A stretch of 64,000 nucleotides of DNA from an uncultured Bacteroidales bacterium (GTDB taxonomy: Bacteria > Bacteroidota > Bacteroidia > Bacteroidales > Paludibacteraceae). Both the position numbers and the translations under genes were made by a program. The stretch lies in NCBI GenBank assembly GCA_902785605.1, contig CACZZL010000009.1, positions 1 to 64,000 of the forward strand. Direction: 5' to 3'. Shown piece after piece: positions 4,655 to 56,107 of the stretch. Every line of letters begins with the position of its first letter. The first letter of the stretch is position 1. A model generated the notes under the pieces. The model made no database searches and was not told the DNA's origin. It was given only the letters and a program-made list of their open reading frames with translations.

Positions 4655-4675
4655 AATTTGAAATTTGAAATTTGA
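4655..4675 (+). repeat. heptamer array, 3 x AATTTGA
   Basis: Three perfect head-to-tail copies of AATTTGA end 1 nt before the ATG at 4677, in the short gap between ychF and the exchanger gene. Confidence 0.85.
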
Positions 4676-4676
4676 A

Positions 4677-5672
4677 ATGATCGAATCATTATTAGCATAC
4701 GGTTGGTGGGTCTGCGCCATCCTGATCGTAGTCGGTTTCGTAGCCTTGGTCAAAGGCGCAGACTGGTTGGTAGACGGCGCTTCCGCTATCGCCAAACGCT
4801 TCGGTATCAGTGACCTGGTCATCGGTCTGACCGTTGTCGCGTTCGGCACCTCGATGCCGGAGTTTGTGGTCAACATGGTCTCCGTGGCAGAAGGCACCAC
4901 CGATCTGGCACTGACGAACATCCTCGGTTCCAACATCATCAACACCTTCGTCATCCTCGGCCTCACGGCCCTGGTTTACCCGATCGCATCGCAGAAACAT
5001 AGCCGTAACTACGATATCCCGCAATCGATCATCGCCGGTATGCTGGTGCTCAGTTTTGTGGCTATCCAACTGCCCTTTGGTGAGACCGATCGGGGCGTCG
5101 GACGAGTAGGCGGCGTGGTACTGCTGACCATGTTCGGATTCTTCCTCTACAACACCTACCGCTTCGCCAAAAAACATCCGGAGAAAACAGAAAGCGAAGA
5201 ATCCGGCACCAAGGATATACCGGTACGCCGTGCGATCGCGCTGATGTTAGGCGGTTTTATAGGACTGGTAGTAGGAGGCGAACTGATTGTAAAAAGTGCC
5301 GTTGAAATCGCACGATTATGCCATGTGGGCGAAGCCATCATCGGTCTGACCGTTGTAGCCCTGGGTACATCCCTACCCGAACTGGCGACTTCCGTCATTG
5401 CAGCGTTCAAGAAGAACAGCGATATCGCCCTCGGCAATGTGATCGGCAGTAATATCTTCAACGTCTTCTTTGTGCTGGGCACCAGCGCAGTCGTCCGTCC
5501 GCTGCCCTCGTACGAAGGCATTGAACTGGATGCGCTCATGGCCGCCCTGGGCAGTATCATCGTCTGGCTCGCTGTCAAAACGAACCGCGAACGCAAGATC
5601 CAACGCTGGGCAGGAGCGCTGCTGTTGCTCGTCTATGGCGGATACCTGACCTACCGGTTAATGATGATTTAA
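4677..5672 (+). CDS. calcium/sodium antiporter (CaCA family, YrbG type)
   Basis: Integral membrane exchanger of about 331 aa with two inverted alpha repeats. Alpha-1 contains GLTVVAFGTSMPEFVVN and alpha-2 GLTVVALGTSLPELATS, each followed by a GSNI-N motif; these carry the acidic ion-binding Glu residues. About ten membrane segments are visible, split by a hydrophilic loop (KKHPEKTESEESGTKD). The ATG at 4677 is chosen; a TTG at 4665 in the same frame lies inside the heptamer array. It probably exports Ca2+ across the inner membrane in exchange for Na+ or H+. Co-transcription with ychF is likely given the short gap. Confidence 0.93.
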   Translation: MIESLLAYGWWVCAILIVVGFVALVKGADWLVDGASAIAKRFGISDLVIGLTVVAFGTSMPEFVVNMVSVAEGTTDLALTNILGSNIINTFVILGLTALVYPIASQKHSRNYDIPQSIIAGMLVLSFVAIQLPFGETDRGVGRVGGVVLLTMFGFFLYNTYRFAKKHPEKTESEESGTKDIPVRRAIALMLGGFIGLVVGGELIVKSAVEIARLCHVGEAIIGLTVVALGTSLPELATSVIAAFKKNSDIALGNVIGSNIFNVFFVLGTSAVVRPLPSYEGIELDALMAALGSIIVWLAVKTNRERKIQRWAGALLLLVYGGYLTYRLMMI

Positions 5673-5691
5673 AGGCGAAAGGCTAAAGGTT
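5671..5691 (+). repeat. heptamer array AAAGGCG-AAAGGCT-AAAGGTT
   Basis: Three 7-nt units sharing AAAGG; the array spans the stop codons of the converging exchanger and glycosyltransferase genes. Confidence 0.7.
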
Positions 5692-6483
5692 GGCATTAAA
5701 GAGACGACGCTCTCTGTCGAAGAGCCAACCCCACTTATTGAAATAGCGACACATGTTTTGGATATGGATCCGAAGCATGTGTTTGTTTTTATACGATGCC
5801 TGCGCATGATCATGCACGATCGTCCATTCCGGATAATAGAGCGTGAGCCAGTTGCGGTGAATCGAGCGCGTGAGGTCAATATCCTCCGGGTACATAAAAT
5901 AGCGCTCGTCGAACAGTCCTGCCTCTACTGCCGCTTGGGTGCGTAGTAACATGAAACAGCCGCTCAGATAGGGCGCGTTGATCGGACGCTCCAGATCCTT
6001 GTCGCGCAACTCATACCGCTTATTACGCTTTGCCATGAGCCATGCCGGCAGGAAACGACGGCCGAACACATCCAACGGCGTCGGCAAACGCTTGGCCAGA
6101 TACTGCTGCGTGCCATCGGGATTCAGCACCTTAGGCATCAACTGTCCCACCTGAGGGTGGACCATCATCCAGTCGTGCATCGCGTCGATATCCTCCGCTT
6201 TCACGCGTATATCGCTGTTCAACACCAGATGCAGATCAATACGCCGATACGCACTCTCCCGTAACGCGACGTTATGCGCACGACCATACCCGAGATTAGA
6301 CGGCATATGCATATAACGCAACTTCGAATGCTTGATCACCGTCTTGGGATACACCTCCCGCGCTTCGCTGTTGTCCAGCAGGTACAGCTTATGCAGGCTC
6401 TTCACACGCAACAGCTCCTCCACAAGAGGCAACACCTCCTGCTCCCAATTCGGATGATATAAGACAATGGAAATATTTAACAT
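5683..6483 (-). CDS. glycosyltransferase family 2 (rhamnosyltransferase-like)
   Basis: GT-A fold enzyme of about 266 aa. The N-terminus MLNISIVLYHPN starts the nucleotide-binding fold; LVLNSDIRV supplies the D-x-D-like motif, and the AGLFDERYFMYPEDIDLTRSI stretch is the acceptor-side motif typical of WbbL-like rhamnosyltransferases. No membrane segment is seen, so it probably acts at the cytoplasmic face. An ATG at 6504, directly after the stop of the next gene, would add MTNDQSP, encoded by a heptamer array; family starts favour ATG 6483. It is the last gene of a six-gene glycan assembly operon. rmlC and rmlD elsewhere in the window could supply dTDP-rhamnose. Confidence 0.88.
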   Translation of the reverse strand: MLNISIVLYHPNWEQEVLPLVEELLRVKSLHKLYLLDNSEAREVYPKTVIKHSKLRYMHMPSNLGYGRAHNVALRESAYRRIDLHLVLNSDIRVKAEDIDAMHDWMMVHPQVGQLMPKVLNPDGTQQYLAKRLPTPLDVFGRRFLPAWLMAKRNKRYELRDKDLERPINAPYLSGCFMLLRTQAAVEAGLFDERYFMYPEDIDLTRSIHRNWLTLYYPEWTIVHDHAQASYKNKHMLRIHIQNMCRYFNKWGWLFDRERRLFNANL

Positions 6484-6502
6484 TGGTGATTGGTCATTGG
6501 TC
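6482..6502 (+). repeat. heptamer array ATTGGTG-ATTGGTC-ATTGGTC
   Basis: Three units between two glycosyltransferase genes. Read on the minus strand it can encode TNDQSP upstream of the likely start. The same unit family occurs inside the gene at 12497-12934. Confidence 0.8.
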
Positions 6503-6504
6503 AT

Positions 6505-7245
6505 TTATCGTAGAAACTGACGCACCTTGCGCAGTTGTTTACATGCCACCGTAAGGTATCCGGCACCGATATGGTTCTTCTTGAGCGCTATATAATCCTC
6601 TTGGGTCTTGGACAACCTGGCCTTGGTGTTCTTGTTGCTCGCTCCGCCGATCTCCATGGACACGATCACTTCCGGTATATAGTGCGTTTTGTACCCGGCA
6701 CTGAAGATGCGCAGCATCATGTCATAGTCCGCCGAGATACGGAACCACTCGTCGTACTCGCCCACTTGGTCATACACGCTCTTACGGACATACACCGTCG
6801 GGTGCGGAGGCATCCAACCGTACTTGAGACTACGCGGGTTAAACGCATTACTCTCCCAATGACGCACCACGCGGTTTCCCCGGCAATACTGCAAATCGCC
6901 ATACACCACATCCGCCCCGGTGGAGGCAAAAGCGGCTGCGATATGTTCGATGGAATCGGGCGCAAACAGCACATCGTCGGAGTGCAGGAACCCGATCACA
7001 TCGCCGGTCGCCATGCGGATGCCTTTATTGATGGCATTGTAAATGCCTTCATCTTTTTCCGACACCCACCGCACGTTCGGATGCAGCTTGGCATAACTCT
7101 CTATCACCTCTTTCGTACCATCCGTCGAAGCGCCATCCACGATGATGTGCTCTATCTCCGCATACGTCTGCCCCTGCACGCTCGCCAGTGCCCGCTGCAC
7201 CGTCTTGGTGCTGTTGTAGGTAATGGTTATAATCGATATTTTCAT
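6505..7245 (-). CDS. glycosyltransferase family 2
   Basis: 246-aa GT-A enzyme beginning MKISIITITYNSTKTV, followed by IEHIIVDGASTDGT (nucleotide binding) and GFLHSDDV, whose acidic residues bind the metal and sugar nucleotide. The HPTVYVRKSVYDQVGEYDE and SADYDMMLRI segments are the usual acceptor-side motifs of WcaA/colanic-acid-type GT2 enzymes. Its start overlaps the end of the upstream GT4 gene by 4 nt (ATGA), indicating translational coupling. The donor sugar cannot be predicted from sequence alone. Confidence 0.92.
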   Translation of the reverse strand: MKISIITITYNSTKTVQRALASVQGQTYAEIEHIIVDGASTDGTKEVIESYAKLHPNVRWVSEKDEGIYNAINKGIRMATGDVIGFLHSDDVLFAPDSIEHIAAAFASTGADVVYGDLQYCRGNRVVRHWESNAFNPRSLKYGWMPPHPTVYVRKSVYDQVGEYDEWFRISADYDMMLRIFSAGYKTHYIPEVIVSMEIGGASNKNTKARLSKTQEDYIALKKNHIGAGYLTVACKQLRKVRQFLR

Positions 7246-11615: not shown

Positions 11616-11637
11616 AGGTGTGGATGATAAAAGTGTG

Positions 11638-11670: not shown

Positions 11671-11694
11671 CTTTTGTGCTTTTTGTACAAAAAA

Positions 11695-11718: not shown

Positions 11719-11745
11719 TCATTTTTGCTAACGAGCAATGGTTTT

Positions 11746-12432: not shown

Positions 12433-12496
12433 ATTTTTTTGCAAAATTCATTCAAAAAAAGACGATTTTTGATGCTAAACTTCGCAAAACGGCCGA

Positions 12497-12934
12497 TTAC
12501 TCCGTATAAGTAGGGATCGTAGCCGAGGTGGTTATCGCTTCGCCCGAAAGGTGCACCACGATGGTTTGCGGCCCGTTGTGCAAAATAAGCCAGGGCACAT
12601 TCAACCGACGGTTATACACAATCGCCTGATCGAGTGTTTTTTGCGTCAAGGGCACAGTCTCCGCCTTGCACTCAATGAGCATCATCGGCTGCATGGAGCG
12701 ATCATACACGATCGCATCGGCGCGATAACGCTTTGCGTTAGTTGGTGATTGGTGATTGGTGATTGGTAATTGAAGCGGCACTTCCACGGCAATGAGAGAG
12801 GCCGGATAATGCAGTTGCTCCACCAAACGATGAAGCAACTGTTGTCTTACCCACTCTTCCGGAGTGAGGCGTACCCATCGGTGACGCCACTCGCAAAAGA
12901 TCTGCTCTTTGCCGTTGAACACTCTCGTTCGCAT
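12497..12934 (-). CDS. HsdR N-terminal-like (PD-D/ExK) protein with in-frame heptamer insertion
   Basis: 145-aa protein of the short HSDR_N_2 type that is widespread in Bacteroidetes. LTPEEWVRQQLLHRL is the usual N-terminal motif; RADAIVYD gives the first catalytic Asp and MLIECKAE the ExK pair, followed by QAIVYNRRLNVPWLILHNG. It lacks the helicase part of true restriction subunits, and its role is unknown. Between the beta-strand VPLQL and KRYRAD lies PITNHQSPTN, encoded by four TTGGTGA-type heptamers (12742-12769); relatives as I recall them have only a two- to four-residue turn here. Confidence 0.82.
   Translation of the reverse strand: MRTRVFNGKEQIFCEWRHRWVRLTPEEWVRQQLLHRLVEQLHYPASLIAVEVPLQLPITNHQSPTNAKRYRADAIVYDRSMQPMMLIECKAETVPLTQKTLDQAIVYNRRLNVPWLILHNGPQTIVVHLSGEAITTSATIPTYTE
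12742..12769 (+). repeat. heptamer array, 3 x TTGGTGA + TTGGTAA, inside a gene
   Basis: Four head-to-tail 7-nt units lie within the HsdR_N-like gene and keep its frame. The same unit family separates two glycosyltransferase genes at 6482-6502. Confidence 0.85.
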
Positions 12935-16309: not shown

Positions 16310-16311
16310 AA

Positions 16312-16339
16312 TAATTAATAATTAACAATTTATAATGAA
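16312..16339 (+). repeat. heptamer array TAATTAA, TAATTAA, CAATTTA, TAATGAA
   Basis: Four AT-rich 7-nt units fill most of the 40-nt gap between lpxD and lpxC. Confidence 0.7.
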
Positions 16340-16349
16340 TATCAACATT

Positions 16350-17360
16350 TTAATGTTGACCTGATTGTTTGAAGCGAACGACGGCGCGTCTCCATGTAGC
16401 GGCATCGATGGCGGGGTAACCCATGTATGTACCGGATTTGCGGATAGAGTTGGGAACGCCTGTTTGGGCGCCGAAGACGCAGTTATCCGCGATCTCGATA
16501 TGTCCCGCCACGCCGACCTGTCCGGCTAAGATGCAATGTTTACCGACCTTGGAACTACCGGCGATACCCACTTGGGCACAGCAGAAAGTGGATTCGCCGA
16601 TCTCCACATTGTGGGCGATCTGGACGAGGTTGTCTATCTTGGCATTCTTGCGCACGATGGTGCTACCCATCATAGCGCGGTCGATAGTGGTATTAGCGCC
16701 GATCTCCACATCGTCCTCAATGATGACATTGCCGATCTGCGGAATCTTTTGGTTCACCCCTTGCGCATCGGGTTCGAAACCAAAGCCGTCGGAACCGATG
16801 ACCACACCGGCATGGAGGATACAGTCTTTCCCGATCACCGAATGGGCGTACACCTTGACACCGGCGTACAGCACCGTGTTGTCTCCGATGGTCACGTTGT
16901 CACCGATATAGACGTTGGGGTATATCTGCACACCGGCACCCAAGCGCACGTTCTGACCGATATACGCAAACGCACCGACATACGCATCGTCGGGCACGGC
17001 TACGCCTTGAGCAATGAACGACGGCTGTTCCACGCCCTGCTTGCGCGGGTTCATGGCTTTGGAGACCAGTTGCAACAACTGTCCCATAGCACCGCGTGCG
17101 TTCTCCACCAGAATGAACGCACCACCGGCTTTGCCTTCTCCGTCAGGAAAAGCGATCTTGCCTTCTACGAGGCTACGGGTGATAAGCACCACGCCCGCTT
17201 TGGTCGTAGCCAAATACGGCAGGTATTTCTCTTCGGTAACAAACGACAGGTGTTTGGCCTGCGCTTGCTCGATCGGTGCCACATCACTGACCAGGGCATT
17301 CGAATTACCATACAACGCCCCGCCCAATAAAGCAGCTATTTGTTGTGCACTAAATTCCAT
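16350..17360 (-). CDS. lpxD: UDP-3-O-(3-hydroxyacyl)glucosamine N-acyltransferase
   Basis: 336-aa third enzyme of lipid A synthesis. The N-terminal uridine-binding domain (MEFSAQQIAALLGGAL, HLSFVTEEKYLPYL) is followed by a hexapeptide-repeat beta-helix (VRLGAGVQIYPNVYIGDN) and the catalytic-His segment IAHNVEIGE. The end, GVPNSIRKSGTYMGYPAI, is typical. Order lpxD-lpxC-lpxA matches the Bacteroidetes lipid A cluster. Its ATG overlaps the upstream HD gene by 1 nt (TAATG). Confidence 0.96.
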   Translation of the reverse strand: MEFSAQQIAALLGGALYGNSNALVSDVAPIEQAQAKHLSFVTEEKYLPYLATTKAGVVLITRSLVEGKIAFPDGEGKAGGAFILVENARGAMGQLLQLVSKAMNPRKQGVEQPSFIAQGVAVPDDAYVGAFAYIGQNVRLGAGVQIYPNVYIGDNVTIGDNTVLYAGVKVYAHSVIGKDCILHAGVVIGSDGFGFEPDAQGVNQKIPQIGNVIIEDDVEIGANTTIDRAMMGSTIVRKNAKIDNLVQIAHNVEIGESTFCCAQVGIAGSSKVGKHCILAGQVGVAGHIEIADNCVFGAQTGVPNSIRKSGTYMGYPAIDAATWRRAVVRFKQSGQH

Positions 17361-24737: not shown

Positions 24738-24790
24738 AATGTTTTGTGTTTTAATGGGTTAATAAATAATGTTGATTGGATTCTTTTTAT

Positions 24791-24901
24791 AGTTTATAGT
24801 TGAAAGTTTAAAGTTTATAGAAGTCGTCTGGTTTGAAGTTTATAGTATAAAACTTTCGTCTTTAAACTTTATTACTTCTTTCAACTCTCAACTTTCAACT
24901 T
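24791..24901 (+). repeat. two opposed heptamer arrays between susD and the lipoprotein gene
   Basis: 24791-24818 has four units (AGTTTAT, AGTTGAA, AGTTTAA, AGTTTAT); 24881-24901 has three units of the reverse-complement family (TCAACTC, TCAACTT, TCAACTT). Together with the AAACTTT stretches between them they can fold into an extended hairpin over most of the gap. Confidence 0.75.
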
Positions 24902-24912
24902 TTAACACTCAT

Positions 24913-26616: not shown

Positions 26617-26622
26617 AATTCT

Positions 26623-26650
26623 TTCAACTTTAAACTTTAAACATTCAACT
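26623..26650 (+). repeat. heptamer array TTCAACT, TTAAACT, TTAAACA, TTCAACT
   Basis: Four 7-nt units in the 33-nt gap between susC and susD. The family is the same as in the next gap downstream (24881-24901). Confidence 0.75.
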
Positions 26651-29600
26651 TAGAAAGAGATCTCAACCCCACCTTGGAACGTACGTCCGACAGGATAGTT
26701 TTCCGAATAGAAGCCAGCGAGACTGTACGTTGATTTCTCCATTGTGATTTCCGGGTCCATACCGGAGAACTTGGAGGCGGTGAAGAGGTTGTCAGCCGAG
26801 AAATAGATGCGGCACTTGGTCATGTGCGCCTTGCTGATGAGCGTCAGCGGGAAGTCATAACCAACGGTCAGGTTCTTAAGACGGAAGTAGGAACCGTCCT
26901 CGAGATAACGAGACGAGATCTGGTTGGCGTTCTTGTTTCCGTTCAAGGTTGCTTTCGGGTGTGTTGCGTTGTCACCCGGGTTCTGCCAACGGCTCCAACC
27001 GAGATTATTGTTCTCGATCGAGAGCTGGTTGTACCCCAGATAAGCACCATCGGCATCCGAGGAGTGACGGGTGTAGTTGTAAATCGTATTACCGTACTGG
27101 TAGTTGCTGTTCATATGAATGAAGATACCCTTCCAGCTCAGTTGTGTGCTCAAACCGCCGGAGAACAACGGAGTCGCTTTGCCCACTGCATGTGCGTACG
27201 TATTGTTGTAGTCATTGGTAGTGGTCTTGTTGCCGGCTGCATCCAGGATGTAGTTACCGTCTGCATCTACGCAGTACCACAGCGGGTCACCATTCGTCGG
27301 ATCCACACCTGCCCACTCTTTGAGCCACCATGTGTAGATATCCTCACCCTCAGCAATACGCTGGTTAACAGAAGATGCCTGTTGGAAGATCGGAGTATGA
27401 TCCGGCAGGCTGGTTACACGGTTCTGGTTGAAACCGATGTTGAAACCGATATCCCAACGCCAACCATTCAGATTGATGACATTCGCGTTGATATTGAACT
27501 CAACACCACGGTTACGAACCGCACCCGAGTTCTTCATTACCTCGTAGAAACCGGATGATGGCGGTAGTGGAACGTAGAGCAATAGCTCCGTATTATCCGT
27601 CTGATAGAGGTCGATATTCATCTCAATACGTTTGATGAACGTCAGGTCGATACCGAGGGCTGCCATCTTCGCGGTCTCCCAGTGCAAATCCGGGTTAGAC
27701 ATACGGCTCGGGCTCGCTGCTACATTGCCTTGATAGAGCGCGCTCAACGAATAAGTGGACAGGTACTGGTAAGCCGGGATATCACTGTTACCCGTGATAC
27801 CGTACGAAGCACGGAGTTTGAAGAAACTTACGACATCCTGGTTCTTCATGAAGTCCTCGTTACTGATTAACCAGCTGGCTGCTACTGAGGGGAAATGACC
27901 CCAACGGTGGAAATTACCGAAGTTGGAGTTAGCCTCCGTACGGTACGAAGCCGTAATGAAATAACGCTTGCCATAATCGTAGCTGGCCTGTACGAAGAAC
28001 GACAATGCCTTACCCGGCATGATGTAACCGCCATTGGTAAACGGAGAAGAAGAGTTCAAGGCTTGTACACCGTTCGGCATACCTACACCCGAAGCATTCA
28101 GATACTCCGACTGCCAGATACTGAACTCATGACCGATCATAGCGTTGAAGCTGTGCTTATCCCACTGATAACCACCTTTCAGGAGGTTCGTCGTGCCGAA
28201 CGATTTGCTCTGTCCGACACTCTTCTCCAGATATCCGTTCTGATACGACGTATCATAGGTACGCGGGTCAATATAGGTTGAACTCAACCAGTGTCCGGCA
28301 CCGAACGTGTTCGTTGTCGAGAAGTGCAACCAATCCGTGAAATGTACGTTCAACTGCAGCACACCTGCGAAATCGAAGCTCTCCGACTTAGCGTAGTTGT
28401 ACTCCGTGCCGTGCAACGAGTTCCAGGTCTCCTGGCTCCACCATTTCTGGCCGTTGTCCGGACGCTTACCGTTGGTGATCATCACATATTGGTTGGTCAG
28501 GTTACCTGCCTCATCATATGCGTACGGGCAGTCCCACGGCATCTTGAAGAAGGCATCACCCAACATCGTCCAACTGGATGCATAATCTACGCTCGACTTC
28601 GAGAAGTCAACCTTGATATTCATATCCAACCATTTGGTAATGTCTGCTTTCAACGAAGCGTGACCTGTCACCTTCTGCATACCGGTCGATTTGAGCGTTC
28701 CCTGCTCACCGAAGTAGTCGAGCGATACATAGTATCCTACGTGCTCCGAACCGCCGTGAACAGCTACGTTGTAGTTCTGTACCACACCGGTATGGAAGAA
28801 CTCGTTCTGCCAGTTCCAGTCTTGATCCAGCAAACTCTCCGGATAGGTCAATTTGAATACGGTCGGCGAGAAGAGTTGGCTGTGGAAATTGTACAACTCA
28901 GCCGAACGCATCATGCGGTAGTTACCGAACAATGCCTGCTTGGCACCGGCTGTTGCCTTGAGGTCCACATGCACTTTGTCACCTTTCTTACCACTCTTGG
29001 TCGTTACTACGATAACACCACCTGCACCCTGTGCACCGTAGATACCGGTCGAACCGGCGTCTTTCAATACGGAGATGGTCTCTACGTCGTTCGGGTTGAA
29101 CGCACCGCCCATCACACCATCTACTACGTAGATAGGAGCGGAACCGGCGTTGATAGAACCTGTACCACGAATACGGATCTGAGCCGCATCACCCGGCTGA
29201 CCACCGGCGTTAGAAACGGTCAATCCGGCTACTTTACCTTGCAGCATATTACCGAGGTCACTGGTCGTCACATCGGTCAACTCGTCTGCAGTCACTGTTA
29301 CTACGGCAGAACTCAACTCTGCACGCTTCACTGCCGAATAACCCAAAGATACCACTTCTTGCAACATTTGAGCATCCGACTCCATGATAATGTTCATGTC
29401 GGCTACGGCACGAACTTCAATCGTTTTGTAGCCGATGTACGACAATTGCAATGTTGCTTTGTCAGGCACCGTGAGTTGGAAATTACCGTCAAAATCAGTA
29501 ACCGTACCGGTTGACGATCCTTTCACCAGAACACTCACACCGATCATCGGCTCTGCACCATCGGCGTCGATCACCTTACCTTTGACGTGGATATCAGCAA

Positions 29601-29652
29601 ATGCTGCTACCGCCAACGTCAGGCAGAGAAAGATTGCTTGGATTCGTTTCAT
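26650..29652 (-). CDS. SusC/RagA-family TonB-dependent outer membrane transporter
   Basis: 1000 aa. Signal peptide MKRIQAIFLCLTLAVAAFA; a carboxypeptidase-regulatory-like domain (VKGKVIDADGAEPMIGVSVL, residues about 22-105); the plug domain with the SusC hallmark (IRIRGTGSINAGSAPIYVVDG, about 115-225); then a 22-strand barrel ending in GGVEISF with a terminal Phe, the signal for BAM assembly. It imports oligosaccharides in a TonB-dependent way together with the SusD lid. There is no N-terminal STN domain, so control by an anti-sigma factor is not expected; the neighbouring DeoR-type regulator is the likely control. Confidence 0.97.
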   Translation of the reverse strand: MKRIQAIFLCLTLAVAAFADIHVKGKVIDADGAEPMIGVSVLVKGSSTGTVTDFDGNFQLTVPDKATLQLSYIGYKTIEVRAVADMNIIMESDAQMLQEVVSLGYSAVKRAELSSAVVTVTADELTDVTTSDLGNMLQGKVAGLTVSNAGGQPGDAAQIRIRGTGSINAGSAPIYVVDGVMGGAFNPNDVETISVLKDAGSTGIYGAQGAGGVIVVTTKSGKKGDKVHVDLKATAGAKQALFGNYRMMRSAELYNFHSQLFSPTVFKLTYPESLLDQDWNWQNEFFHTGVVQNYNVAVHGGSEHVGYYVSLDYFGEQGTLKSTGMQKVTGHASLKADITKWLDMNIKVDFSKSSVDYASSWTMLGDAFFKMPWDCPYAYDEAGNLTNQYVMITNGKRPDNGQKWWSQETWNSLHGTEYNYAKSESFDFAGVLQLNVHFTDWLHFSTTNTFGAGHWLSSTYIDPRTYDTSYQNGYLEKSVGQSKSFGTTNLLKGGYQWDKHSFNAMIGHEFSIWQSEYLNASGVGMPNGVQALNSSSPFTNGGYIMPGKALSFFVQASYDYGKRYFITASYRTEANSNFGNFHRWGHFPSVAASWLISNEDFMKNQDVVSFFKLRASYGITGNSDIPAYQYLSTYSLSALYQGNVAASPSRMSNPDLHWETAKMAALGIDLTFIKRIEMNIDLYQTDNTELLLYVPLPPSSGFYEVMKNSGAVRNRGVEFNINANVINLNGWRWDIGFNIGFNQNRVTSLPDHTPIFQQASSVNQRIAEGEDIYTWWLKEWAGVDPTNGDPLWYCVDADGNYILDAAGNKTTTNDYNNTYAHAVGKATPLFSGGLSTQLSWKGIFIHMNSNYQYGNTIYNYTRHSSDADGAYLGYNQLSIENNNLGWSRWQNPGDNATHPKATLNGNKNANQISSRYLEDGSYFRLKNLTVGYDFPLTLISKAHMTKCRIYFSADNLFTASKFSGMDPEITMEKSTYSLAGFYSENYPVGRTFQGGVEISF

Positions 29653-29656
29653 GATA

Positions 29657-29677
29657 ATGAATAATGATTAATGAATA
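29657..29677 (+). repeat. heptamer array ATGAATA, ATGATTA, ATGAATA
   Basis: Three 7-nt units in the 29-nt gap between the GH36-like gene and susC. Confidence 0.65.
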
Positions 29678-29681
29678 AAGA

Positions 29682-31556
29682 TTATTTGTTTTCTGACAGT
29701 TTCAGCAGATAGTTGCGCGTGAACTCCACCTCAATCTTCGGATTCGCGCCGCTGACCTCAAACTCACGCGGTTCATCCGCCGTGTACTCAATAGCCGTAT
29801 AGGTCTTCGCGGGATCCAGACCCTTCAACTCTATCTCTCCCTCAAAAGCCGGATCATCATCGATATAGAAAGCATAATAGAGCGCATCGTTCTGACGGAT
29901 CACGTGTGCCTCCGGATAGTCATAACCCCAAGTGTAGAGGTTCAGGTACTCACCACGAGCCAGGTTGTTCTCCTTATAGATCTTCATCCATTTGCGGATG
30001 AGCGCCTCTTTCTCCGGCGTCAACTTGAACGGACCTTCCGTCCAATCCGGGTTGTCCTCCGGATAGGTGAACTTGGTACCAATCACCGAACCGGTACCGA
30101 TCTGCGAAGCAAAATCATCACCGCCGTCCGTCAATTCGATATGGTCACCGTAGTAAGCCAGCCCGGGTGCCATCGCCGCATAGGCTTTGCGTTTCATACG
30201 TACCTGACGAGAAGACATCGGGTCGGACGCCACCGCCTGATTGATCTGCGGAACAATCCAGTAGTTCACTGCGCAACCGCACGGACAGATCTGAATAACC
30301 GCATTCGGCTTGTACTGACGTGCCTCGTTATACACCTTCTCGTAATAGGTGTACATCTTCTCCGGCGCTTCCCATGCATTGTCCAAACCTGTATGCTCGT
30401 TATAATCCGGCAGACAGCAGTTGAGGTGCTGACCGTCAATCTTCAAACCGTCGAAGTTCCATGTCTGCAGGAACATCTTCAGCAGGTCCTTCGTATACGC
30501 ATCCGTCGCAGGATTGATTGGCGACAGATACCAACTGTCCCACCATGTGATATACTCGTGTGCCCACTCGTCGGTCAACAGCAACATCTCCGGGTGCTCT
30601 TTGACGAGCTTCGTATCCGGGTCAGCCGCCAACGGAGCCCACCACAGTTTGGCCTTCATGCCGCGTTTGTGAATCTCATCCGTGATGTGACGCATGTCTT
30701 TGTCGCCACCGGGGAAAAGTTCATTGGTGTTCCAATCACCTTCCGCAATCTGGTATCCGTCATCTACGTCCACCCAGGTAAAACCGAGTTCCGCTACTTT
30801 GTCCAGCGTACCCAATACCATGTTCATCTTGAACGGACGTCCGTATCCCCATGCGCACCAAACCGGCTCGAATGCCTCCGGCTCGGACGGTTTCATCTCC
30901 ACGCCTTCATTCGCCTGCATGTACTCCGAGAACGTACGAAGTGCCGTGAAATAGTCTCCTTTGTGCGTATAGCGGAATGCTTTGAAGCAACGCAGCGTAT
31001 CGCCTGTTGCCAACTCTTTCGGCTCCGGCAGGTTATAGTGCAGCGCCATCGACACCTTGTTGTCATACCGCTTCCACGCTACCGGCATCGAGATCATGCG
31101 GAGCACCGGCTCAAACAGACCGATCGCCACACCGCCATCACGCTGCCATAAGTCCACTACCGGGATACCGCCTCCGTAGTCGGAGTTGTTCATGCCCAGG
31201 TAGTTCTCTTTCTCAAATCCCTCTGTCACCGGAAGTACCCAATCCAAACGGGCGTTGGTGCTGCTCGGCTGGAGCGACCATACGACCGAGTCCTGTGCCT
31301 CCACCTCTGTGCGGCACAACTCATACCCCTTCACCGTCACCGGCTTGCCTTCGTTCACGAAATACGTCTCTACAATCTCCAGACCTTCCACTCCTTTTAC
31401 CGGAGTCACCGTCTGGTGTTTACTCACGCGCAAGCCGTTCTCGCTGTACGGGAACGACTGCATATCCGCTTCGGCGCAAATCAAACGCGCTGTGTCCGCT
31501 TTCGGCGCACAGGCTGCTAAAAGGACAGCGGCAATAATGTAAAGTGACTTTTTCAT
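29682..31556 (-). CDS. GH36-like alpha-galactosidase family lipoprotein
   Basis: 624 aa with lipoprotein signal MKKSLYIIAAVLLAAC (Cys16). An N-terminal beta-supersandwich precedes the (beta/alpha)8 barrel: FTWVDVDDGYQIAEGDW, KRGMKAKLWWAPLAADPDT, then FDGLKIDGQHLNCC with the likely nucleophile Asp near residue 374 and QAVASDPMSSRQVR with the acid/base Asp near 445. This is the clan GH-D arrangement of alpha-galactosidases and alpha-N-acetylgalactosaminidases; the exact aglycone is not predictable. It shares one base with the upstream amidohydrolase gene (TAATG). Confidence 0.85.
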   Translation of the reverse strand: MKKSLYIIAAVLLAACAPKADTARLICAEADMQSFPYSENGLRVSKHQTVTPVKGVEGLEIVETYFVNEGKPVTVKGYELCRTEVEAQDSVVWSLQPSSTNARLDWVLPVTEGFEKENYLGMNNSDYGGGIPVVDLWQRDGGVAIGLFEPVLRMISMPVAWKRYDNKVSMALHYNLPEPKELATGDTLRCFKAFRYTHKGDYFTALRTFSEYMQANEGVEMKPSEPEAFEPVWCAWGYGRPFKMNMVLGTLDKVAELGFTWVDVDDGYQIAEGDWNTNELFPGGDKDMRHITDEIHKRGMKAKLWWAPLAADPDTKLVKEHPEMLLLTDEWAHEYITWWDSWYLSPINPATDAYTKDLLKMFLQTWNFDGLKIDGQHLNCCLPDYNEHTGLDNAWEAPEKMYTYYEKVYNEARQYKPNAVIQICPCGCAVNYWIVPQINQAVASDPMSSRQVRMKRKAYAAMAPGLAYYGDHIELTDGGDDFASQIGTGSVIGTKFTYPEDNPDWTEGPFKLTPEKEALIRKWMKIYKENNLARGEYLNLYTWGYDYPEAHVIRQNDALYYAFYIDDDPAFEGEIELKGLDPAKTYTAIEYTADEPREFEVSGANPKIEVEFTRNYLLKLSENK

Positions 31557-41258: not shown

Positions 41259-41260
41259 TA

Positions 41261-41300
41261 CTAGTTGTCTAGTTGCCTAGCCGTCTAGTAGACTAGTCTA
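41261..41300 (+). repeat. octamer array, five units starting CTAG
   Basis: CTAGTTGT, CTAGTTGC, CTAGCCGT, CTAGTAGA, CTAGTCTA, exactly 8 nt each, fill the gap between the PfkB gene and the 814-aa gene. CTAG is fixed while the second half varies. Confidence 0.85.
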
Positions 41301-43656: not shown

Positions 43657-43691
43657 CTTTAGCCTATAACCTTTAGCCTTTAGCCTTTATT
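43657..43691 (+). repeat. heptamer array CTTTAGC, CTATAAC, 2 x CTTTAGC, CTTTATT
   Basis: Five 7-nt units between the esterase gene and the stop of the GatZ/KbaZ-like gene; the last unit runs through that stop codon. Confidence 0.8.
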
Positions 43692-44924: not shown

Positions 44925-44959
44925 AATTTTTAATTCTTAATTTTTAATTTTTAATTATT
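44925..44959 (+). repeat. heptamer array, AATTTTT family, five units
   Basis: AATTTTT, AATTCTT, AATTTTT, AATTTTT, AATTATT in the 38-nt gap between agaS and the GatZ/KbaZ-like gene. Confidence 0.8.
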
Positions 44960-46097
44960 CATAAATCGTCACTCCCTCTACCACGCGGTGGATATTTCCG
45001 CTTACGCTCGGTGCATCCGGATTCAGACCGTGTGCCAACGAAGCATAGTAGCCCAGCAACTGACCAACAACCACGAACGGCACAATGCCATAGTGCTCAT
45101 TCTCTGCATAACCGTACGGCATCTTAACCACGAGGTCAGCCTTCACGCCCGGTAACTCCGGTGCCTTGCCACCAATCACAATGATCTGTGCAACCGGCGT
45201 GTTGTTCGCATCTACCTGCTTAACCAGGTCGCGCTCATAGCGCTGTACACTCTCCTGATCGGTCATCAGATAAACAACGATCGACTTGCTGTTTACCACA
45301 GCTTTCGGGCCATGACGGAAGCCCAGGAAGCTATCGAACTTACATACTACCGCACCATCAGTCAACTCCTGCAACTTCAGATGGCACTCTTCAGCTATTC
45401 CCTTCAGTGCACCCGATCCCAGGAACACACCGCGCTCGAACGGACGGCTCGCAATCTCTTTCAGTTTATCCTCGTACTCGGCAATAACAGCCTCAGCATT
45501 CTTCGCTGTCTTCTCGATCATCTCCTGATCCTTATCCAGCGTATCAATATGACCGAGCATCAAGCAGGTCAGCAACATCGTCGAGAACGAACTGGTCATA
45601 GCCAACGACTTGTCATCGGTCTCTTCCGGCAACAGCAGCAACAGGATATTACTTTCGCCATTCGCCATTCGCCTTTCGCCTGCTTGCTTGGCAAGCTCAC
45701 CGTTCTTATTACAAGTGATATACACGTGAGCTACGTTCTTACAAACCTTGTTCGCCAGATTCACGGCTGCCACACTCTCCGGGCTGTTTCCAGAACGGGC
45801 AAAACTAATCAGCAACAACGGACGCTCTTTGTCCAGCAGGTACTCTGCATGCGTTACGATATCGGTCGTAGCTACCGAACGTACATTACGCCACATACCG
45901 CGCATTACCGGACACAACGCATCACCGATAAATGCCGATGTTCCCGCACCCGTCAACACGACATCCGTGTCCGGAGTCAAATACTTGTGCATAAACGCAC
46001 TAACCTCAGCCTTCTTCTCTAACAGCATTCCCATCTCTTTCCGCCACATCGCAGGCTGCTGATGAATCTCATTGAATGTAAACATTGTGTTTGCCAT
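44955..46097 (-). CDS. agaS: AgaS-like SIS-domain sugar-phosphate isomerase/deaminase
   Basis: 380 aa with two SIS domains: VVLTGAGTSAFIGDAL, LLISFARSGNSPESVAAV, and FLGSGALKGIAEECHLKLQELT, then SFLGFRHGPKAVVN and the C-terminal DAPSVSGNIHRVVEGVTIY, typical of AgaS (galactosamine-6-phosphate deaminase/isomerase). It should convert galactosamine 6-phosphate to tagatose 6-phosphate and ammonia. Between KNGELAKQA and LLLLPEETDD lies GERRMANGES, encoded by a four-unit heptamer array (45653-45680); compared with enterobacterial AgaS this is about six residues longer. First gene of the operon, preceded by the hairpin-array leader. Confidence 0.88.
   Translation of the reverse strand: MANTMFTFNEIHQQPAMWRKEMGMLLEKKAEVSAFMHKYLTPDTDVVLTGAGTSAFIGDALCPVMRGMWRNVRSVATTDIVTHAEYLLDKERPLLLISFARSGNSPESVAAVNLANKVCKNVAHVYITCNKNGELAKQAGERRMANGESNILLLLLPEETDDKSLAMTSSFSTMLLTCLMLGHIDTLDKDQEMIEKTAKNAEAVIAEYEDKLKEIASRPFERGVFLGSGALKGIAEECHLKLQELTDGAVVCKFDSFLGFRHGPKAVVNSKSIVVYLMTDQESVQRYERDLVKQVDANNTPVAQIIVIGGKAPELPGVKADLVVKMPYGYAENEHYGIVPFVVVGQLLGYYASLAHGLNPDAPSVSGNIHRVVEGVTIYE
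45653..45680 (+). repeat. heptamer array TTTCGCC, 2 x ATTCGCC, TTTCGCC inside agaS
   Basis: Four exact 7-nt units inside the coding region, read on the minus strand as GERRMANGES. The frame is kept. Confidence 0.85.
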
Positions 46098-46138: not shown

Positions 46139-46418
46139 GCCCATCGGACCTTTCTTCGTTCGCCTTCTTCGTGCCCATCGGACCTTCTTCGGTTCTTCGT
46201 GCCCATCGGGCCTTTCTTCGGTTCTTCGTGCACTTTGGCGACATTTTTGTCGCCATTAGCAGCTTGGCTTTTCTTCGTTCATTAGCCCGGCATCGTATGC
46301 CGGCCGTCTACTTTGCTTTCCTGCGCCTATAGGAGCCTGCTTCGTTTCTCGTGCCCATCGGGCCTTTCTTCGTTCATTAGCCCGGCATCGTATGCCGGCT
46401 TTCTCGCGCCCATCGGGC
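46139..46418 (-). ncRNA. multi-hairpin leader array before agaS
   Basis: Five copies of an 11-nt hairpin, GCCCATCGG[GA]C on the plus strand, stand at 46139, 46173, 46201, 46353 and 46408. Two identical 20-nt hairpins (46285-46304, 46380-46399; CCCGGCAT-CGT-ATGCCGG) and one GGCGACA/TGTCGCC hairpin (46237-46254) lie among them, plus a weaker CCTATAGG element (46324-46336). On the minus strand each small hairpin follows a purine-rich CGAAGAA(A) linker. The two variant copies change C-G to U-G on the minus strand, which still pairs, but to C-A on the plus strand; so the RNA is read from the minus strand, as leader of agaS. Function unknown: stability, attenuation or protein binding are options. 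Confidence 0.65.
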
Positions 46419-46604: not shown

Positions 46605-46677
46605 TAAAAGTCAAAAACACCCATCTCCATTTCATCTCACACCCGTTCACTCCTCGTTTTCGGTCCAATAGTACGAG

Positions 46678-46732
46678 ATTAGTAGGATATTAGTAGGTGA
46701 TTAGTAGGTGATTAGTAGGTGATTAGTAGGTG
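46678..46732 (+). repeat. 11-bp tandem repeat, five copies of ATTAGTAGGTG type
   Basis: One ATTAGTAGGAT and four ATTAGTAGGTG units, followed by a degenerate ATAATCGG. The period is close to one DNA helical turn, and the array lies between two blocks of candidate DeoR operators. Confidence 0.9.
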
Positions 46733-46799
46733 ATAATCGGTCCGTTCAACGATCGTCTTGTTGTCAAGAACACTTCTCCCTATTACTATTCTGCCTCAA

Positions 46800-49884: not shown

Positions 49885-49927
49885 TTACAGGAATACCGAA
49901 AAACAAACACACTAAAATTTTAGCATT

Positions 49928-50065
49928 ATGAGAAAACATTATATTATACCTAGCACAACATCTGTTGCTCTTCGTACAGATCATGTATGCCAAGCCCTCG
50001 TGAACTCTGTTCATGGTAACCTGAATTTACATTTCATCCCCGGAACAGACGAGGACCCGATTTAA
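49928..50065 (+). CDS. 45-aa peptide of the MxKxYIIPxT type
   Basis: The ORF begins MRKHYIIPSTTSVALRTD and ends TDEDPI. Short peptides starting M-K/R-K-x-Y-I-x-P and continuing with a Val/Leu-rich strand are frequent in Bacteroidales next to genes for secreted proteins; I know no function. It lies 43 nt after the beta-helix gene, and its stop overlaps an ATG (TAATG at 50063-50067) in frame with the next gene, so it is probably co-translated. It has no signal peptide. Confidence 0.6.
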   Translation: MRKHYIIPSTTSVALRTDHVCQALVNSVHGNLNLHFIPGTDEDPI

Positions 50066-50082
50066 TGCCCATACACATCCTT

Positions 50083-53966: not shown

Positions 53967-53979
53967 AATACTAAATTTT

Positions 53980-54609
53980 TCAATCTTCAATCTTCAATTT
54001 CAACTCCTCTATACTCTCGCACGTTTTCCAGCCTGCAAACTGCTCTCCCGCCTTGCGGTTTTTCTCGAGATCATCGACATAAATCGTGTGTGCACTGTCT
54101 ATCTTCGCCTCACGCACCACATGCTCAAAAATCTCCTGATTCGGCTTGGCCATATGCAGATGATGCGACGCAAAAACAGCATCGAAATACGAGCCTAATT
54201 GATATTGTTCCCAGATCGGATCCCAATGCAGCGCATTCGAATTGGACAACAGCACGGTCCGATACCCTTTCTTACGCAGCGCCGCAATATAATCCAATCG
54301 CTCTTGCGGTAACTCATCCAACATACTCAACCACGCAGCACGGATCTCCTCAATCGTCGTCCCTGCGTAGCAGTATTCCTGCAGACTCTTTAAAAAATCA
54401 TCGGTACTGATATTCCCGTACTCATAGTCATGCATCAACTGCTTCGTAGCCGCACTCACAGCGACCACTCCTTCCCCTTCATCATCGATACCCAACACAT
54501 TCCGCACATTCGCTTCACCCATCATGCGTTTGAAGTTCCCCACACAACGAGGCACATTCAGATTGATGATCACACCTCCTAAATCAAAGACAATAGTATT
54601 TACGTCCAT
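53980..54609 (-). CDS. HAD-superfamily sugar-phosphate phosphatase
   Basis: 209-aa HAD hydrolase, YihX-like. Motif I is VFDLGGVIINLN (nucleophile Asp, though the second position is Gly-Gly), motif II LLSNSNALHW, motif III with Lys in HMAKPNQEIF, and motif IV IYVDDLEKN. A helical cap lies between motifs I and II. Such enzymes dephosphorylate sugar phosphates, for example alpha-glucose 1-phosphate. The last codons (ELKLKIED) are encoded by the heptamer array at 53981-54001, and the gene overlaps the upstream DUF4832 gene by 26 nt. Confidence 0.88.
   Translation of the reverse strand: MDVNTIVFDLGGVIINLNVPRCVGNFKRMMGEANVRNVLGIDDEGEGVVAVSAATKQLMHDYEYGNISTDDFLKSLQEYCYAGTTIEEIRAAWLSMLDELPQERLDYIAALRKKGYRTVLLSNSNALHWDPIWEQYQLGSYFDAVFASHHLHMAKPNQEIFEHVVREAKIDSAHTIYVDDLEKNRKAGEQFAGWKTCESIEELKLKIED
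53981..54001 (+). repeat. heptamer array CAATCTT, CAATCTT, CAATTTC
   Basis: Three units at the HAD/NahK junction; they encode the C-terminus of the HAD protein and lie directly upstream of the kinase start. Confidence 0.75.
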
Positions 54610-56107
54610 CCGACATTAAAATATAAAAGATTCCATTCTCAATCACCTTGGTACATTGGACCTTGTCACTTTGTACATTTTCCACTCCTTCAGACGGCAA
54701 TTCTCCCGGATTCATCGGAGCATTTTGGCTAACGATCACAGTACAATTCAGTCGGTTATAGCCCGAACTTGCATCCCATACATTCACATTCGCACAACGT
54801 ACGGCATAACGCGGATCATTCTGAATCGACTCGTACTTGTCCGGCATCCACAGATATAACTGATAGGCACCTTCCTGCGCATTCTCCGGTATATCCACCT
54901 GTTCGTTGATCCAACTGATCTCCCCGTTCGGCAACCATCTTCTCGGATCGGCTTTCAGCTTCATTGTATACGAAGCCGATACCGCGCCAACTCCTTGCAT
55001 CACCAGATAAACCGGTCGCTCATTGTAGATCGGTGCATACCCGTCATTACGAACCCGTATCGTCACATTCATCTTACCACCGGGCGCTACTTCATCGGTA
55101 TACCGTCCGTCCAACAAATTATACCGATACCCCATATGCACATTCAACGTGTCATAAATACCGCTACTCTTCCATCTGCTCGTTACTTGCGTAGCATAAC
55201 TCTTGCCGCAGAACGACCAGTGGTACTTACTCATCTCCGACGGAGCTTTCGCATAGACCTGCTCTGCCAACGAATTGCTCTCCACATTCGTCTCGCCTCC
55301 ATTCGGCACATACAAAGTCTCTGTGGCTACATATTGACGCACCCTCGGATCATCGTCATTCGTGTTGCTGGCATACGTACCATCATTGCCCCAGTTGTTC
55401 AAGAACGCATCGTTGTGGCACCCCATCCTTGCTTTCTGCGTATTCTGAAACGCCTCTTCTGCCGTCAACGGATTGGAGTCATTCAGATACTCGGTCTTGA
55501 TCATCGGATAGCGGAACAAGACAAAACGGTCGGTCGGTACATTCTCAAACAAATACTGAATCACCAAGCGCCGATTCGCATTCATGTGCTGGCTCTCATT
55601 GCCGTAATTAGTCGTGTAGTACCACTCGCCCCAAGATCCGATGAAACCGGCCTCAATCACATAAATCACATCCGCATTAGCTGCCAGATGCGGCTTCAAC
55701 TGCTCCAAGTGACGTTGAACCCATTCCGGTGTCGCATCTACCTTGTCACTCTGACTCTCCGTATACGCAAAACGCAACACACACTTAATGCCGCAGTCGC
55801 GCAGTATCTGCATGTCTTCGTCAAAACCCGCAAGCACTTCGGACGGGATATCTTCAGCTTTGAACTTATTAAAATTATACAACACCATTACCAGCGTCAT
55901 CTGGTTGCTGCCGCCCCAGTTGTGGTCCAGATTGTTCTTAACCACGGTCGGGTGAGCAACCGACACTTTGTAACTCAACTCTTCAGTATAACCCCTTTCC
56001 GGATTTTTGAAGATCGTTGTATTGTCCGGTGTGTACATCACCACAACGGCTTGCATCGTCATGAACGCACCAAGCAGCATTCCTGCCAAACAAAGAACCT
56101 TTTTCAT
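54584..56107 (-). CDS. secreted DUF4832 protein with repeat-encoded linker (507 aa)
   Basis: Signal peptide MKKVLCLAGMLLGAFMTMQA. DUF4874-like region (IFKNPERGYTEELS, LRFAYTESQ, AGFIGSWGEWYYT, KARMGCHNDAF) and DUF4832 (GYRYNLLDGRYTDE, DPRRWLPNGEIS) follow the same plan as the protein at 1582-3522. Near the C-terminus the sequence VQSDKVQCTK is encoded by an octamer array (54648-54678), before a shortened tail VIENGIFYILMSDGRKYYCL. It heads an operon with HAD, NahK-like and CBM9-like genes, under a strong promoter. Confidence 0.83.
   Translation of the reverse strand: MKKVLCLAGMLLGAFMTMQAVVVMYTPDNTTIFKNPERGYTEELSYKVSVAHPTVVKNNLDHNWGGSNQMTLVMVLYNFNKFKAEDIPSEVLAGFDEDMQILRDCGIKCVLRFAYTESQSDKVDATPEWVQRHLEQLKPHLAANADVIYVIEAGFIGSWGEWYYTTNYGNESQHMNANRRLVIQYLFENVPTDRFVLFRYPMIKTEYLNDSNPLTAEEAFQNTQKARMGCHNDAFLNNWGNDGTYASNTNDDDPRVRQYVATETLYVPNGGETNVESNSLAEQVYAKAPSEMSKYHWSFCGKSYATQVTSRWKSSGIYDTLNVHMGYRYNLLDGRYTDEVAPGGKMNVTIRVRNDGYAPIYNERPVYLVMQGVGAVSASYTMKLKADPRRWLPNGEISWINEQVDIPENAQEGAYQLYLWMPDKYESIQNDPRYAVRCANVNVWDASSGYNRLNCTVIVSQNAPMNPGELPSEGVENVQSDKVQCTKVIENGIFYILMSDGRKYYCL
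54648..54678 (+). repeat. octamer-type array (TTGGTACA, TTGGACC, TTGTCACT, TTGTACAT) inside a gene
   Basis: Four units encode VQSDKVQCTK on the minus strand. The unit family and frame match the array at 8598-8628 in a glycosyltransferase gene. Confidence 0.65.

What the first reader, a model, noticed from the sequence alone, without database searches (positions are those of the whole stretch)
4655..54678. Genome-wide habit of short tandem arrays with period 7 (also 8, 10, 11) at operon junctions
At least fifteen arrays were found, each with its own unit: AATTTGA (4655), AAAGGCT (5671), ATTGGTC (6482), TTGGTGA (12742), TAATTAA (16312), CTATAAC (19770), AGTTTAT/TCAACTT (24791, 24881), TTCAACT (26623), ATGAATA (29657), CTAGnnnn (41261), CTTTAGC (43657), AATTTTT (44925), ATTCGCC (45653), CAATCTT (53981), TTGTACAT (8598, 54648). 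Unit length is conserved but sequence is not, and most fill the gaps between co-directional genes. They recall the heptanucleotide short tandem repeats of heterocystous cyanobacteria, but I know no description for Bacteroidales. Slippage, a templated polymerase process or an unknown element could create them; they may set intercistronic spacing or translation coupling.
Basis: partly seen in the sequence, partly recalled or inferred. Interest (0 to 1): 0.88.

Follow-up and report, generated by a model that had tools for sequence, protein, structure and literature searches.

The report
Copied seven-base repeats between bacterial genes
In an uncultured gut bacterium, many gaps between genes are filled with short seven-base repeats that seem to be copied from place to place within the genome, each species using largely its own set, rather than arising separately at each spot.

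Summary
The window has 11 period-7 segments against 0.2 in shuffles; lag 14 gives 4, all other lags 0-2. A 464 kb sample of the genome has 101, 63 of them in the 10% called non-coding. They sit in 40 of 113 co-directional gaps of 15-100 nt but 1 of 30 divergent gaps. They are common in congeners; two other genera of the family and 20 other families gave none, though 12 more distant loci gave 8. Of 16 p7 sites compared in close relatives, 4 differ by exactly 7 nt.

"Each with its own unit" fails. Unlinked loci in one genome share units far beyond chance (214 coincident pairs against 6), and repertoires are largely genome-specific. A 32-mer with one variant unit in second place occurs at 91 places in 27 of 121 genomes; the mirror control hits twice, the perfect repeat 8 places. 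I read these as dispersed, copied heptad elements, trimmed by slippage, surviving where no ORF or promoter breaks. The copying route is inferred.

Dispersed heptad repeats are known from Xanthomonas, Nostoc, Geobacter and Beggiatoaceae; many families per genome and conserved variant order look new.

The parts
4655..4678 (+). p7 array AATTTGA x3.4 at a co-directional junction, ending in an ATG that is the likely start of the next gene
   Evidence: of 10 relatives shown 4 have no gap there and 6 have 9 to 57 nt
5671..5689 (.). p7 array AAAGGCK x2.7 in a convergent gap
6482..6505 (-). p7 array ATTGGTC/ATTGGTG at a co-directional junction; L253 has TTTAACC heptads there
12742..12772 (-). p7 array ATTGGTG x4.4 inside ORF 12497-12934 (145 aa); L099 keeps it, L103 has AATTGAG/AATTGAC heptads there, 12 of 14 relatives shown have no array
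16310..16352 (-). heptad array between lpxD and lpxC (lpxC starts TTG); arrays at this site in 6 of 30 genomes, own included
24786..24820 (-). p7 array AGTTTAT/AGTTGAA/AGTTTAA in the gap 24738-24912
24881..24911 (-). p7 array AGTTGAA type, same gap
26621..26651 (-). p7 array AAAGTTK filling the junction of a SusD-like and a TonB-receptor gene; the 501-bp query holding it hits 25 other places of the genome, each through this part; L100 has other heptads in the same 36 nt
29651..29684 (-). p7 array containing TATTCATTAATCATTATTCATTAT, an ordered dispersed element (2 exact copies in G000; the same string at lpxD-lpxC of L190 and L202)
41261..41297 (-). period-8 array CTAGnnnn filling the gap 41259-41300; two of four relatives shown have no gap
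43657..43689 (-). p7 array TAAAGGC/TAAAGGT/TATAGGC at a junction
44925..44956 (+). the 32-mer AATTTTTAATTCTTAATTTTTAATTTTTAATT, the commonest dispersed heptad element seen
   Evidence: 91 exact places (C followed by A, G or T; 57 of them CTT) in 27 of 121 congeneric genomes, mirror control 2; unrelated flanks in 35 copies
45654..45680 (-). p7 array GGCGAAT x3.9 inside the SIS-domain gene; the stretch is 18 nt longer than in three and 21 nt longer than in one of four relatives; encodes GERRMANGES
46669..46734 (+). period-11 array TAGTAGGTGAT x6 in a divergent gap; similar stretches of about 50-75 bp at other places in other species
53979..54003 (-). p7 array ATTGAAG x3.7 at a co-directional junction

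Best explanation
The arrays are members of a population of short (about 20-70 bp) heptad-built dispersed repeats. Within one genome the members are copied from locus to locus as blocks, so unlinked arrays share units and even the order of variant units, and each species ends up with a largely own repertoire. After arrival, an array gains or loses whole 7-nt units by replication slippage. Arrays are tolerated mainly where they break no ORF or promoter: between co-directional or convergent genes, and occasionally in frame inside genes. SHOWN: period-7 excess, junction location, sharing of units, conserved order for the commonest element, mostly genome-specific repertoires, single-unit changes, gain/loss and unit change at orthologous sites. 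INFERRED: that the sharing is due to block copying, that this goes by microhomology-mediated template switching or ectopic gene conversion between arrays, and that the net effect on the host is near neutral.
For: Non-random p7: 11 against 0.2; 101 in 464 kb, 63 in the 10.4% non-coding. Placement: 40/113 co gaps of 15-100 nt, 1/30 divergent, 0/63 co overlaps. Shared repertoire: 48 distinct units in 101 arrays, 214 coincident pairs against 6.1 expected, maximum 19 in 2000 simulations; 72 against 2.1 for the 61 arrays with two or more G/C in the unit. Mostly genome-specific: coincidence within G000 4.2% and G007 5.7%, between them 0.55%; G014 against these two 0.07% and 0.18%. Order: the variant-at-unit-2 32-mer at 91 places in 27/121 genomes against 2 for the mirror control (only the CTT form, 57 of the 91, has an exact mirror) and 8 places for the perfect array; in 3.48 Mb of held DNA not fetched with the pattern, variant at unit 1, 2, 3, 4: 1, 6, 0, 0, perfect 0. 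Unit-order test above all 300 permutations in G000 and G035. Flanks of 35 copies unrelated. Exact -7 changes at 4 of 16 p7 sites. Same site, other unit: lpxD-lpxC, 26623, 44925, 6482. L107 has 27 nt before an ATG that L110 lacks, with no evident target duplication.
Against: No copying event was caught between strains of one species; the closest held pairs are about 97% identical. In G007 the order test stayed just under the null maximum (0.9134 against 0.9139), and the count of perfect pairs exceeded the null only in G000 (23, null maximum 21), not in G007 (1, maximum 3) or G035 (23, maximum 30). Order conservation at scale was tested for one element only. Sharing AAAAATT between G000 and G035 (4.8%; G035 stretches were chosen for the element) blurs 'genome-specific' for that family. 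A different array at the same site is about what the base rate predicts: of 36 intervals with a gap of 15 nt or more and no near-identical unit, 10 hold another array, against 40/113 in gaps. Seven of 20 congeneric stretches had no p7 array. No pathway gene tested separates p7-rich from p7-free genomes: recG and mutS1 matches in all 18 genomes tested (G007's recG is split over two contig ends). Part of the unit sharing could come from AT-rich sequence preference.
Confidence: 0.62

Rival explanations
1. Local polymerase slippage alone: a 7-nt step preferred by the replisome (the idea that MacGregor 2015 and Rehm 2015 attribute to Mrazek 2007) makes each array de novo at its own site; junctions are simply where frameshifting duplications are tolerated.
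For: Strict period 7 with harmonics; exact single-unit changes at 4 of 16 sites between close relatives; many arrays stop near ORF boundaries.
Against: Unlinked arrays share units about 35 times more than expected; the ordered imperfect 32-mer is at 91 places (57 in the CTT form) against 2 for the mirror control and 8 for the perfect repeat; 0 arrays in samples of two other genera of the family and of 20 other families.
Confidence: 0.17
2. Functional intercistronic element: the heptads are binding sites or leader sequences selected for translation coupling, mRNA processing or insulation, and similar units arise by convergent selection.
For: Position between stop and start codons; purine bias on the sense strand 37:14; stops in all three frames on the sense strand 71 of 121 against 54 of 121 antisense; precedent proposal for TAACTGA repeats (PMC4679880).
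Against: The commonest element shows no clear orientation preference (9:13) and occurs between convergent genes; units differ between species at the same junction and 24 of 30 lpxD-lpxC junctions have no p7 array; arrays also occur inside ORFs; the stop-codon excess is close to the unit-permutation null of 0.44-0.77.
Confidence: 0.13
3. A dedicated mobile-element machinery (transposase, reverse transcriptase or other templated polymerase) inserts the elements.
For: Copies with unrelated flanks in many species; lpxD-lpxC of G002 shows TTGAAA at both ends of the extra stretch (by eye), which could be a target duplication.
Against: No RVT_1 hit in G000, G007, G014, G035 or G068 (G126 has one); no Y1_Tnp (RAYT-type) hit in G000 or G014, weak or partial hits in G007, G035 and G126, one full-length hit in G068; of 7 arrays none folds significantly; no target duplication evident in L107/L110. 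Other transposases were not searched for.
Confidence: 0.08

Closest known systems
GGGAATC / GGGGA(C/T)T heptamer repeats of Xanthomonas and Nostoc (Rehm et al. 2015, PMC4692102; passages and the Discussion section read)
   Same: Hundreds of short heptad arrays in Xanthomonas, mostly non-coding, close to ORFs, under-represented between divergent ORFs, with length and sequence variation between related species; slippage hypothesis discussed.
   Different: The study is about one G-quadruplex-forming unit type per organism; here tens of unit families per genome, the commonest AT-rich, seven tested arrays without significant structure, with conserved order of variant units and mostly genome-specific repertoires.
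TAACTGA direct repeats of marine Beggiatoaceae (MacGregor 2015, PMC4679880; abstract, passages and two sections read)
   Same: Heptamer arrays, mostly of 2-6 units next to start codons in one genome; a few sets in Bacteroidetes, two of them in Paludibacter propionicigenes.
   Different: A single unit, with related heptamers rarely repeated; in Flexibacter litoralis 12 of 14 sets face the start codon in one orientation. Here the units are many and both orientations occur.
Multicopy heptad elements of Geobacter metallireducens (PMC2700814; passages read)
   Same: A family of 49 dispersed elements of four tandem heptanucleotides, between and within genes, and a second family of 16 sites, 15 of them five tandem heptanucleotides: the nearest match to a 32-bp heptad element.
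   Different: Two families interpreted as regulatory elements; the passages seen give no account of repertoire turnover or slippage.
Heptanucleotide long simple sequence repeats (Mrazek et al. 2007; not read, seen only as cited in PMC4679880 and PMC4692102) and cyanobacterial STRRs (recalled)
   Same: Period 7 is the favoured unit length of long prokaryotic SSRs.
   Different: Explained there by local slippage; the order conservation here points to copying between loci.
REP/REPIN miniature elements (PMC3116915; search listing only)
   Same: Short dispersed repeats evolving within genomes.
   Different: No significant hairpins in 7 arrays; no RAYT-type transposase hit in G000. Palindromes as a mark of REPs are recalled.

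Membership tests
Slippage-type heptanucleotide SSR | unit length 7 in excess over chance | tested here: met
Slippage-type heptanucleotide SSR | copy number changes by whole units between close relatives | tested here: met
   exactly -7 at 4 of 16 p7 sites, in pairs 91.6-97.0% identical
Slippage-type heptanucleotide SSR | independent origin at each locus (no shared units or variant order) | tested here: not met
   with the reservations given in the Against line
Xanthomonas/Nostoc G4 heptads | G-rich unit able to form a quadruplex | tested here: not met
   the commonest units are AAAAATT, AAAAATG, AAAGTTG, AAAGATG; GGGTTAC (7 arrays with its GGGTTAT variant) is the main G-rich type; quadruplex formation itself not tested
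Xanthomonas/Nostoc G4 heptads | avoidance of divergent gaps | tested here: met
   1 of 30 divergent gaps
TAACTGA repeats | TAACTGA as the single repeated unit | tested here: not met
   the unit table of the G000 sample has 48 units, none a rotation or complement of TAACTGA
REP/REPIN/MITE | palindrome or terminal inverted repeats | tested here: not met
   3 of 7 arrays fold with energy below zero, the strongest (the period-8 array) at z -1.8; the 32-mer does not fold
REP/REPIN/MITE | RAYT or other cognate transposase in the genome | tested here: inconclusive
   no Y1_Tnp in G000 (83.5% complete) or G014; weak or partial hits in G007, G035, G126, one full-length hit in G068; other transposases not tested
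REP/REPIN/MITE | target-site duplication | tested here: inconclusive
   TTGAAA at both ends in G002 lpxD-lpxC (by eye); none evident in L107/L110; L106/L127 differ at an AATAA microhomology (by eye)

The most novel reading that the evidence does not exclude
The heptad arrays of a genome behave as one recombining population: an unlinked, genome-wide set of mini-satellites homogenised in trans, a bacterial counterpart of satellite concerted evolution, driven by a lineage-specific copying activity that keeps a 7-nt register and gives each species its own repertoire at gene junctions.
Probability: 0.4. Interest if true: 0.82.

Novelty: new variant of a known kind. Interest (0 to 1): 0.6.

Why it matters
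Heptanucleotide repeats have been noted in several bacteria, with polymerase slippage as the explanation on offer. This genus has more than a hundred species with a held genome, in which arrays with different unit repertoires can be compared at the same junctions, so 'slippage or copying?' and 'why seven?' become testable. It would also mean that gene-junction length and 5' leaders in these gut bacteria are shaped by a restless dispersed repeat, and that annotators and regulator-hunters should expect such filler in both orientations.

Tried and rejected
All-frame stop-codon 'firewall': sense arrays with stops in all three frames 71 of 121, antisense 54 of 121, permutation null 0.44-0.77: too weak. 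Reverse-transcriptase templating: RVT_1 found in none of G000, G007, G014, G035, G068, but in G126. Loss of mismatch repair or RecG: mutS1 over cut-off in 18 of 18; recG over cut-off in 17 of 18, with G007's split over two contig ends. REPIN-like hairpins and Rfam families (only the tRNA). Directed 'hot junction' replacement: of 112 arrays 62 had an orthologous interval; the closest relative has the same unit in 7, one mismatch 4, two 2, another unit 10, no array with a gap of 15 nt or more 26, short or none 13 (reciprocal pairs count twice). The 10 of 36 are about what the base rate of 40/113 gives, so this was not claimed. The dispersed non-heptad repeats look mostly like Bacteroidetes-type promoters (recalled motif). 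The pattern counts in held DNA are biased, because loci had been fetched with the same pattern; searches are the fair ones. The mirror control is exact only for the CTT form of the variant (57 of 91 places), so the order ratio is at least 57 to 2, not 91 to 2.
Full report
WHAT WAS CHECKED. The window is contig C9 of an assembly of 2.08 Mb in 28 contigs, 83.5% complete. By lpxC its nearest named relatives (92% identical proteins) are titled Paludibacteraceae bacterium; many of the 80 named loci are MAGs from ruminants. TRF lists 14 period-7 rows. Lag-7 segments scoring 12 or more number 11 against 0.2 in shuffles; lag 14 gives 4, all other lags 0 to 2. In 464 kb of the genome (window plus 20 stretches, L009-L028), 101 such segments were found, 63 in the 10.4% called non-coding by a home-made gene caller and 38 in called genes; 8 at lag 8, 8 at lag 9, none at lag 10, 9 at lag 11. 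They cover 1954 of 48312 non-coding bases (4%).

WHERE THEY SIT. Of co-directional gaps of 15-100 nt, 40 of 113 carry an array scoring 12 or more (54 of all 286 co-directional pairs); convergent gaps 7 of 37; divergent gaps 1 of 30; overlapping co-directional pairs 0 of 63. Arrays commonly begin at the stop codon of the upstream gene (31 of 54 overlap the end of the upstream ORF), and 24 of 54 end within 5 nt of the next called start or overlap it by up to 8. Some lie inside ORFs: 12742 in a 145-aa ORF (QLPITNHQSPTN) and 45653 in the SIS-domain gene (GERRMANGES). Starts were chosen by the caller, so distances to starts are approximate.

TAXONOMIC SPREAD. Around lpxC, 20 congeners gave 32 arrays in about 376 kb (13 of 20 stretches had at least one); one stretch from each of 20 other Bacteroidales families gave 0 in 324 kb. 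Named loci: 9.9 per 100 kb at lpxC identity 83-92% and at 64-73%, 5.8 at 57-61%, and 3.6 (8 arrays, 12 loci) at 53-56%, titled Bacteroidaceae, Bacteroidales, Prevotellaceae and others, so the trait is not confined to the genus. Larger samples: G000 21.8, G007 13.6, G014 5.8 per 100 kb; G035 32 (stretches chosen for holding the 32-mer, so biased); other genera of the family 0 in 80 kb (G161) and 0 in 48 kb (G271). Period 11 is a second, weaker peak in the family.

SHARED UNITS. If each array arose on its own, consensus units (up to rotation and complement) should rarely coincide. In G000, 101 arrays use 48 units with 214 coincident pairs; a Markov model of the non-array intergenic DNA predicts 6.1, and 2000 simulations never exceeded 19. 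AAAAATT is used 14 times, AAAAATG 10, AAAGTTG 8, AAAGATG 7. G007 (38 arrays) instead uses AAAGTCG 8 times and AACTCTC 4 times. The chance that two arrays share a unit is 4.2% within G000, 5.7% within G007, 0.55% between them; G000 and G035 share AAAAATT (4.8%).

CONSERVED ORDER. Oriented arrays suggest a polarity, AATTC(T/G)T then AATTTTT then CATTTTT (by eye). The 32-mer AATTTTTAATTCDTAATTTTTAATTTTTAATT, with the variant in the second unit, occurs at 91 places in 27 of 121 congeneric genomes (9 in G000); the mirror control hits twice, both in G098. The mirror is exact only for the CTT form, which makes up 57 of the 91. The perfect repeat occurs at 8 places (12 registers) in 5 of 121, none in G000. 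In 3.48 Mb of held DNA not fetched with the pattern, the variant stands at unit 1, 2, 3, 4 in 1, 6, 0, 0 places, and the perfect repeat at none; for TATTCAT arrays with one TAATCAT the counts are 0, 3, 0, and 2 for the perfect one. Thirty-five copies of the 32-mer have unrelated flanks. Shuffling unit order within arrays lowers the best pairwise identity: G000 0.9406 against 0.9215 (maximum of 300: 0.9321), G035 0.9537 against 0.9426 (maximum 0.9499), G007 0.9134 against 0.8846 (maximum 0.9139, so not beyond all permutations); perfect pairs exceed the null maximum in G000 only. The window array at 29654 contains TATTCATTAATCATTATTCATTAT; it has 2 exact copies in G000 and none in 294 other Bacteroidales genomes, of which only one is a congener, but the same string fills the lpxD-lpxC gap of congeners L190 and L202.

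CHANGE OVER TIME. In 11 pairs of loci 88-97% identical, 16 p7 sites could be compared: 1 identical, 4 shorter by exactly 7 nt (L114/L117, L120/L121, L062/L128, L101/L103), 2 of equal length but different, 9 otherwise changed or absent. Of 9 arrays of period 8, 9 or 11, 7 kept their length (3 identical) and 2 changed. Whole arrays also change: at lpxD-lpxC L101 has AATTCGT/AATTTTT and L103 TATTCATTAATCATT, both families seen elsewhere; L069/L113 swap CTGAATC for TTGAAAT units at equal length. At 26623 both species have 36 nt but different heptads; at 44925 three species have 41, 43 and 45 nt of AATTTTT, AAATTTG/AAATCTT and ATTTACA, two more have 79 and 99 nt without such arrays. Over 62 arrays with an orthologous interval the closest relative keeps the unit in 7, has one mismatch in 4, two in 2, another unit in 10, no array in 39. 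Since about a third of such gaps carry some array anyway, I read this as fast independent turnover, not as proof of directed replacement. L107 has 27 nt before an ATG that L110 lacks, with no evident target duplication.

MECHANISM. Slippage explains the single-unit changes but not shared units or conserved order. A reverse transcriptase is unlikely (RVT_1 in none of G000, G007, G014, G035, G068); RAYT-type transposases, hairpins and Rfam families gave no support; recG and mutS1 were found in all 18 genomes tested. I therefore infer block copying between arrays by template switching or ectopic gene conversion, eased by the common heptad register, with survival where no ORF or promoter is broken. 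The step from 'shared and ordered' to 'copied', and from 'copied' to 'how', is inference. An RNA-level function is not excluded (purine bias 37:14) but the common element lies in both orientations (9 '++', 13 '--', 5 convergent, 1 divergent, 7 at locus edges).

LITERATURE. Searches of the open library listed no paper on such arrays in Paludibacteraceae by title or abstract start (no paper holds that name and 'tandem repeat'). The nearest are Rehm 2015 (PMC4692102), MacGregor 2015 (PMC4679880) and the Geobacter metallireducens genome paper (PMC2700814), read in part; passages of PMC6749651 and PMC12699852 were also seen. Mrazek 2007 was not read, only seen as cited. Most subscription papers are not held, so 'not in print' is limited to these searches.

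Numbers were recounted against the calls; the order ratio was lowered to its fair form (57 to at most 2) and results against the reading were added.

Noticed in passing
window 16309 (lpxC start) and orthologues: In all six genomes with a heptad array between lpxD and lpxC the lpxC start is TTG, whereas the other 24 start with ATG; L101 and L103 (arrays) also have TTG, but L123 and L153 have weaker heptad arrays with ATG.
   Followed up: partly
window 46669-46734; L105, L106, L109, L112, L125, L128 near 11.7 kb: Period-11 arrays seem to form dispersed families too: the window array has similar stretches at other places in other species, and the junction downstream of lpxA carries p11 arrays with different units in different species.
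   Followed up: partly
L013 19146-19221 and L010 15239-15291: Two unlinked stretches called as coding share an irregular heptad string (GGCGAAAGGGTAGAGGCKAA), so elements also seem to land inside genes.
   Followed up: no
L117 about 14760-14860: An array site differs by a 54-nt longer stretch holding a C-rich/G-rich inverted repeat (CCCCCTCTCAGAGGGGG) next to heptads; a C/G-rich stretch of similar look appears in L103 opposite the L101 array at 14.3 kb.
   Followed up: no
own genome sample L009-L028: The other abundant dispersed intergenic motif (GTACCTTTGCA preceded by TTGCATATGTCAAAAA) looks like the Bacteroidetes-type promoter (recalled).
   Followed up: no
window 46139-46231: A 28-bp tandem repeat (GCCCATCGGACCTTTCTTCG...) lies in the divergent gap before the gene at 47026; parts of this gap match other places in relatives.
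   Followed up: no
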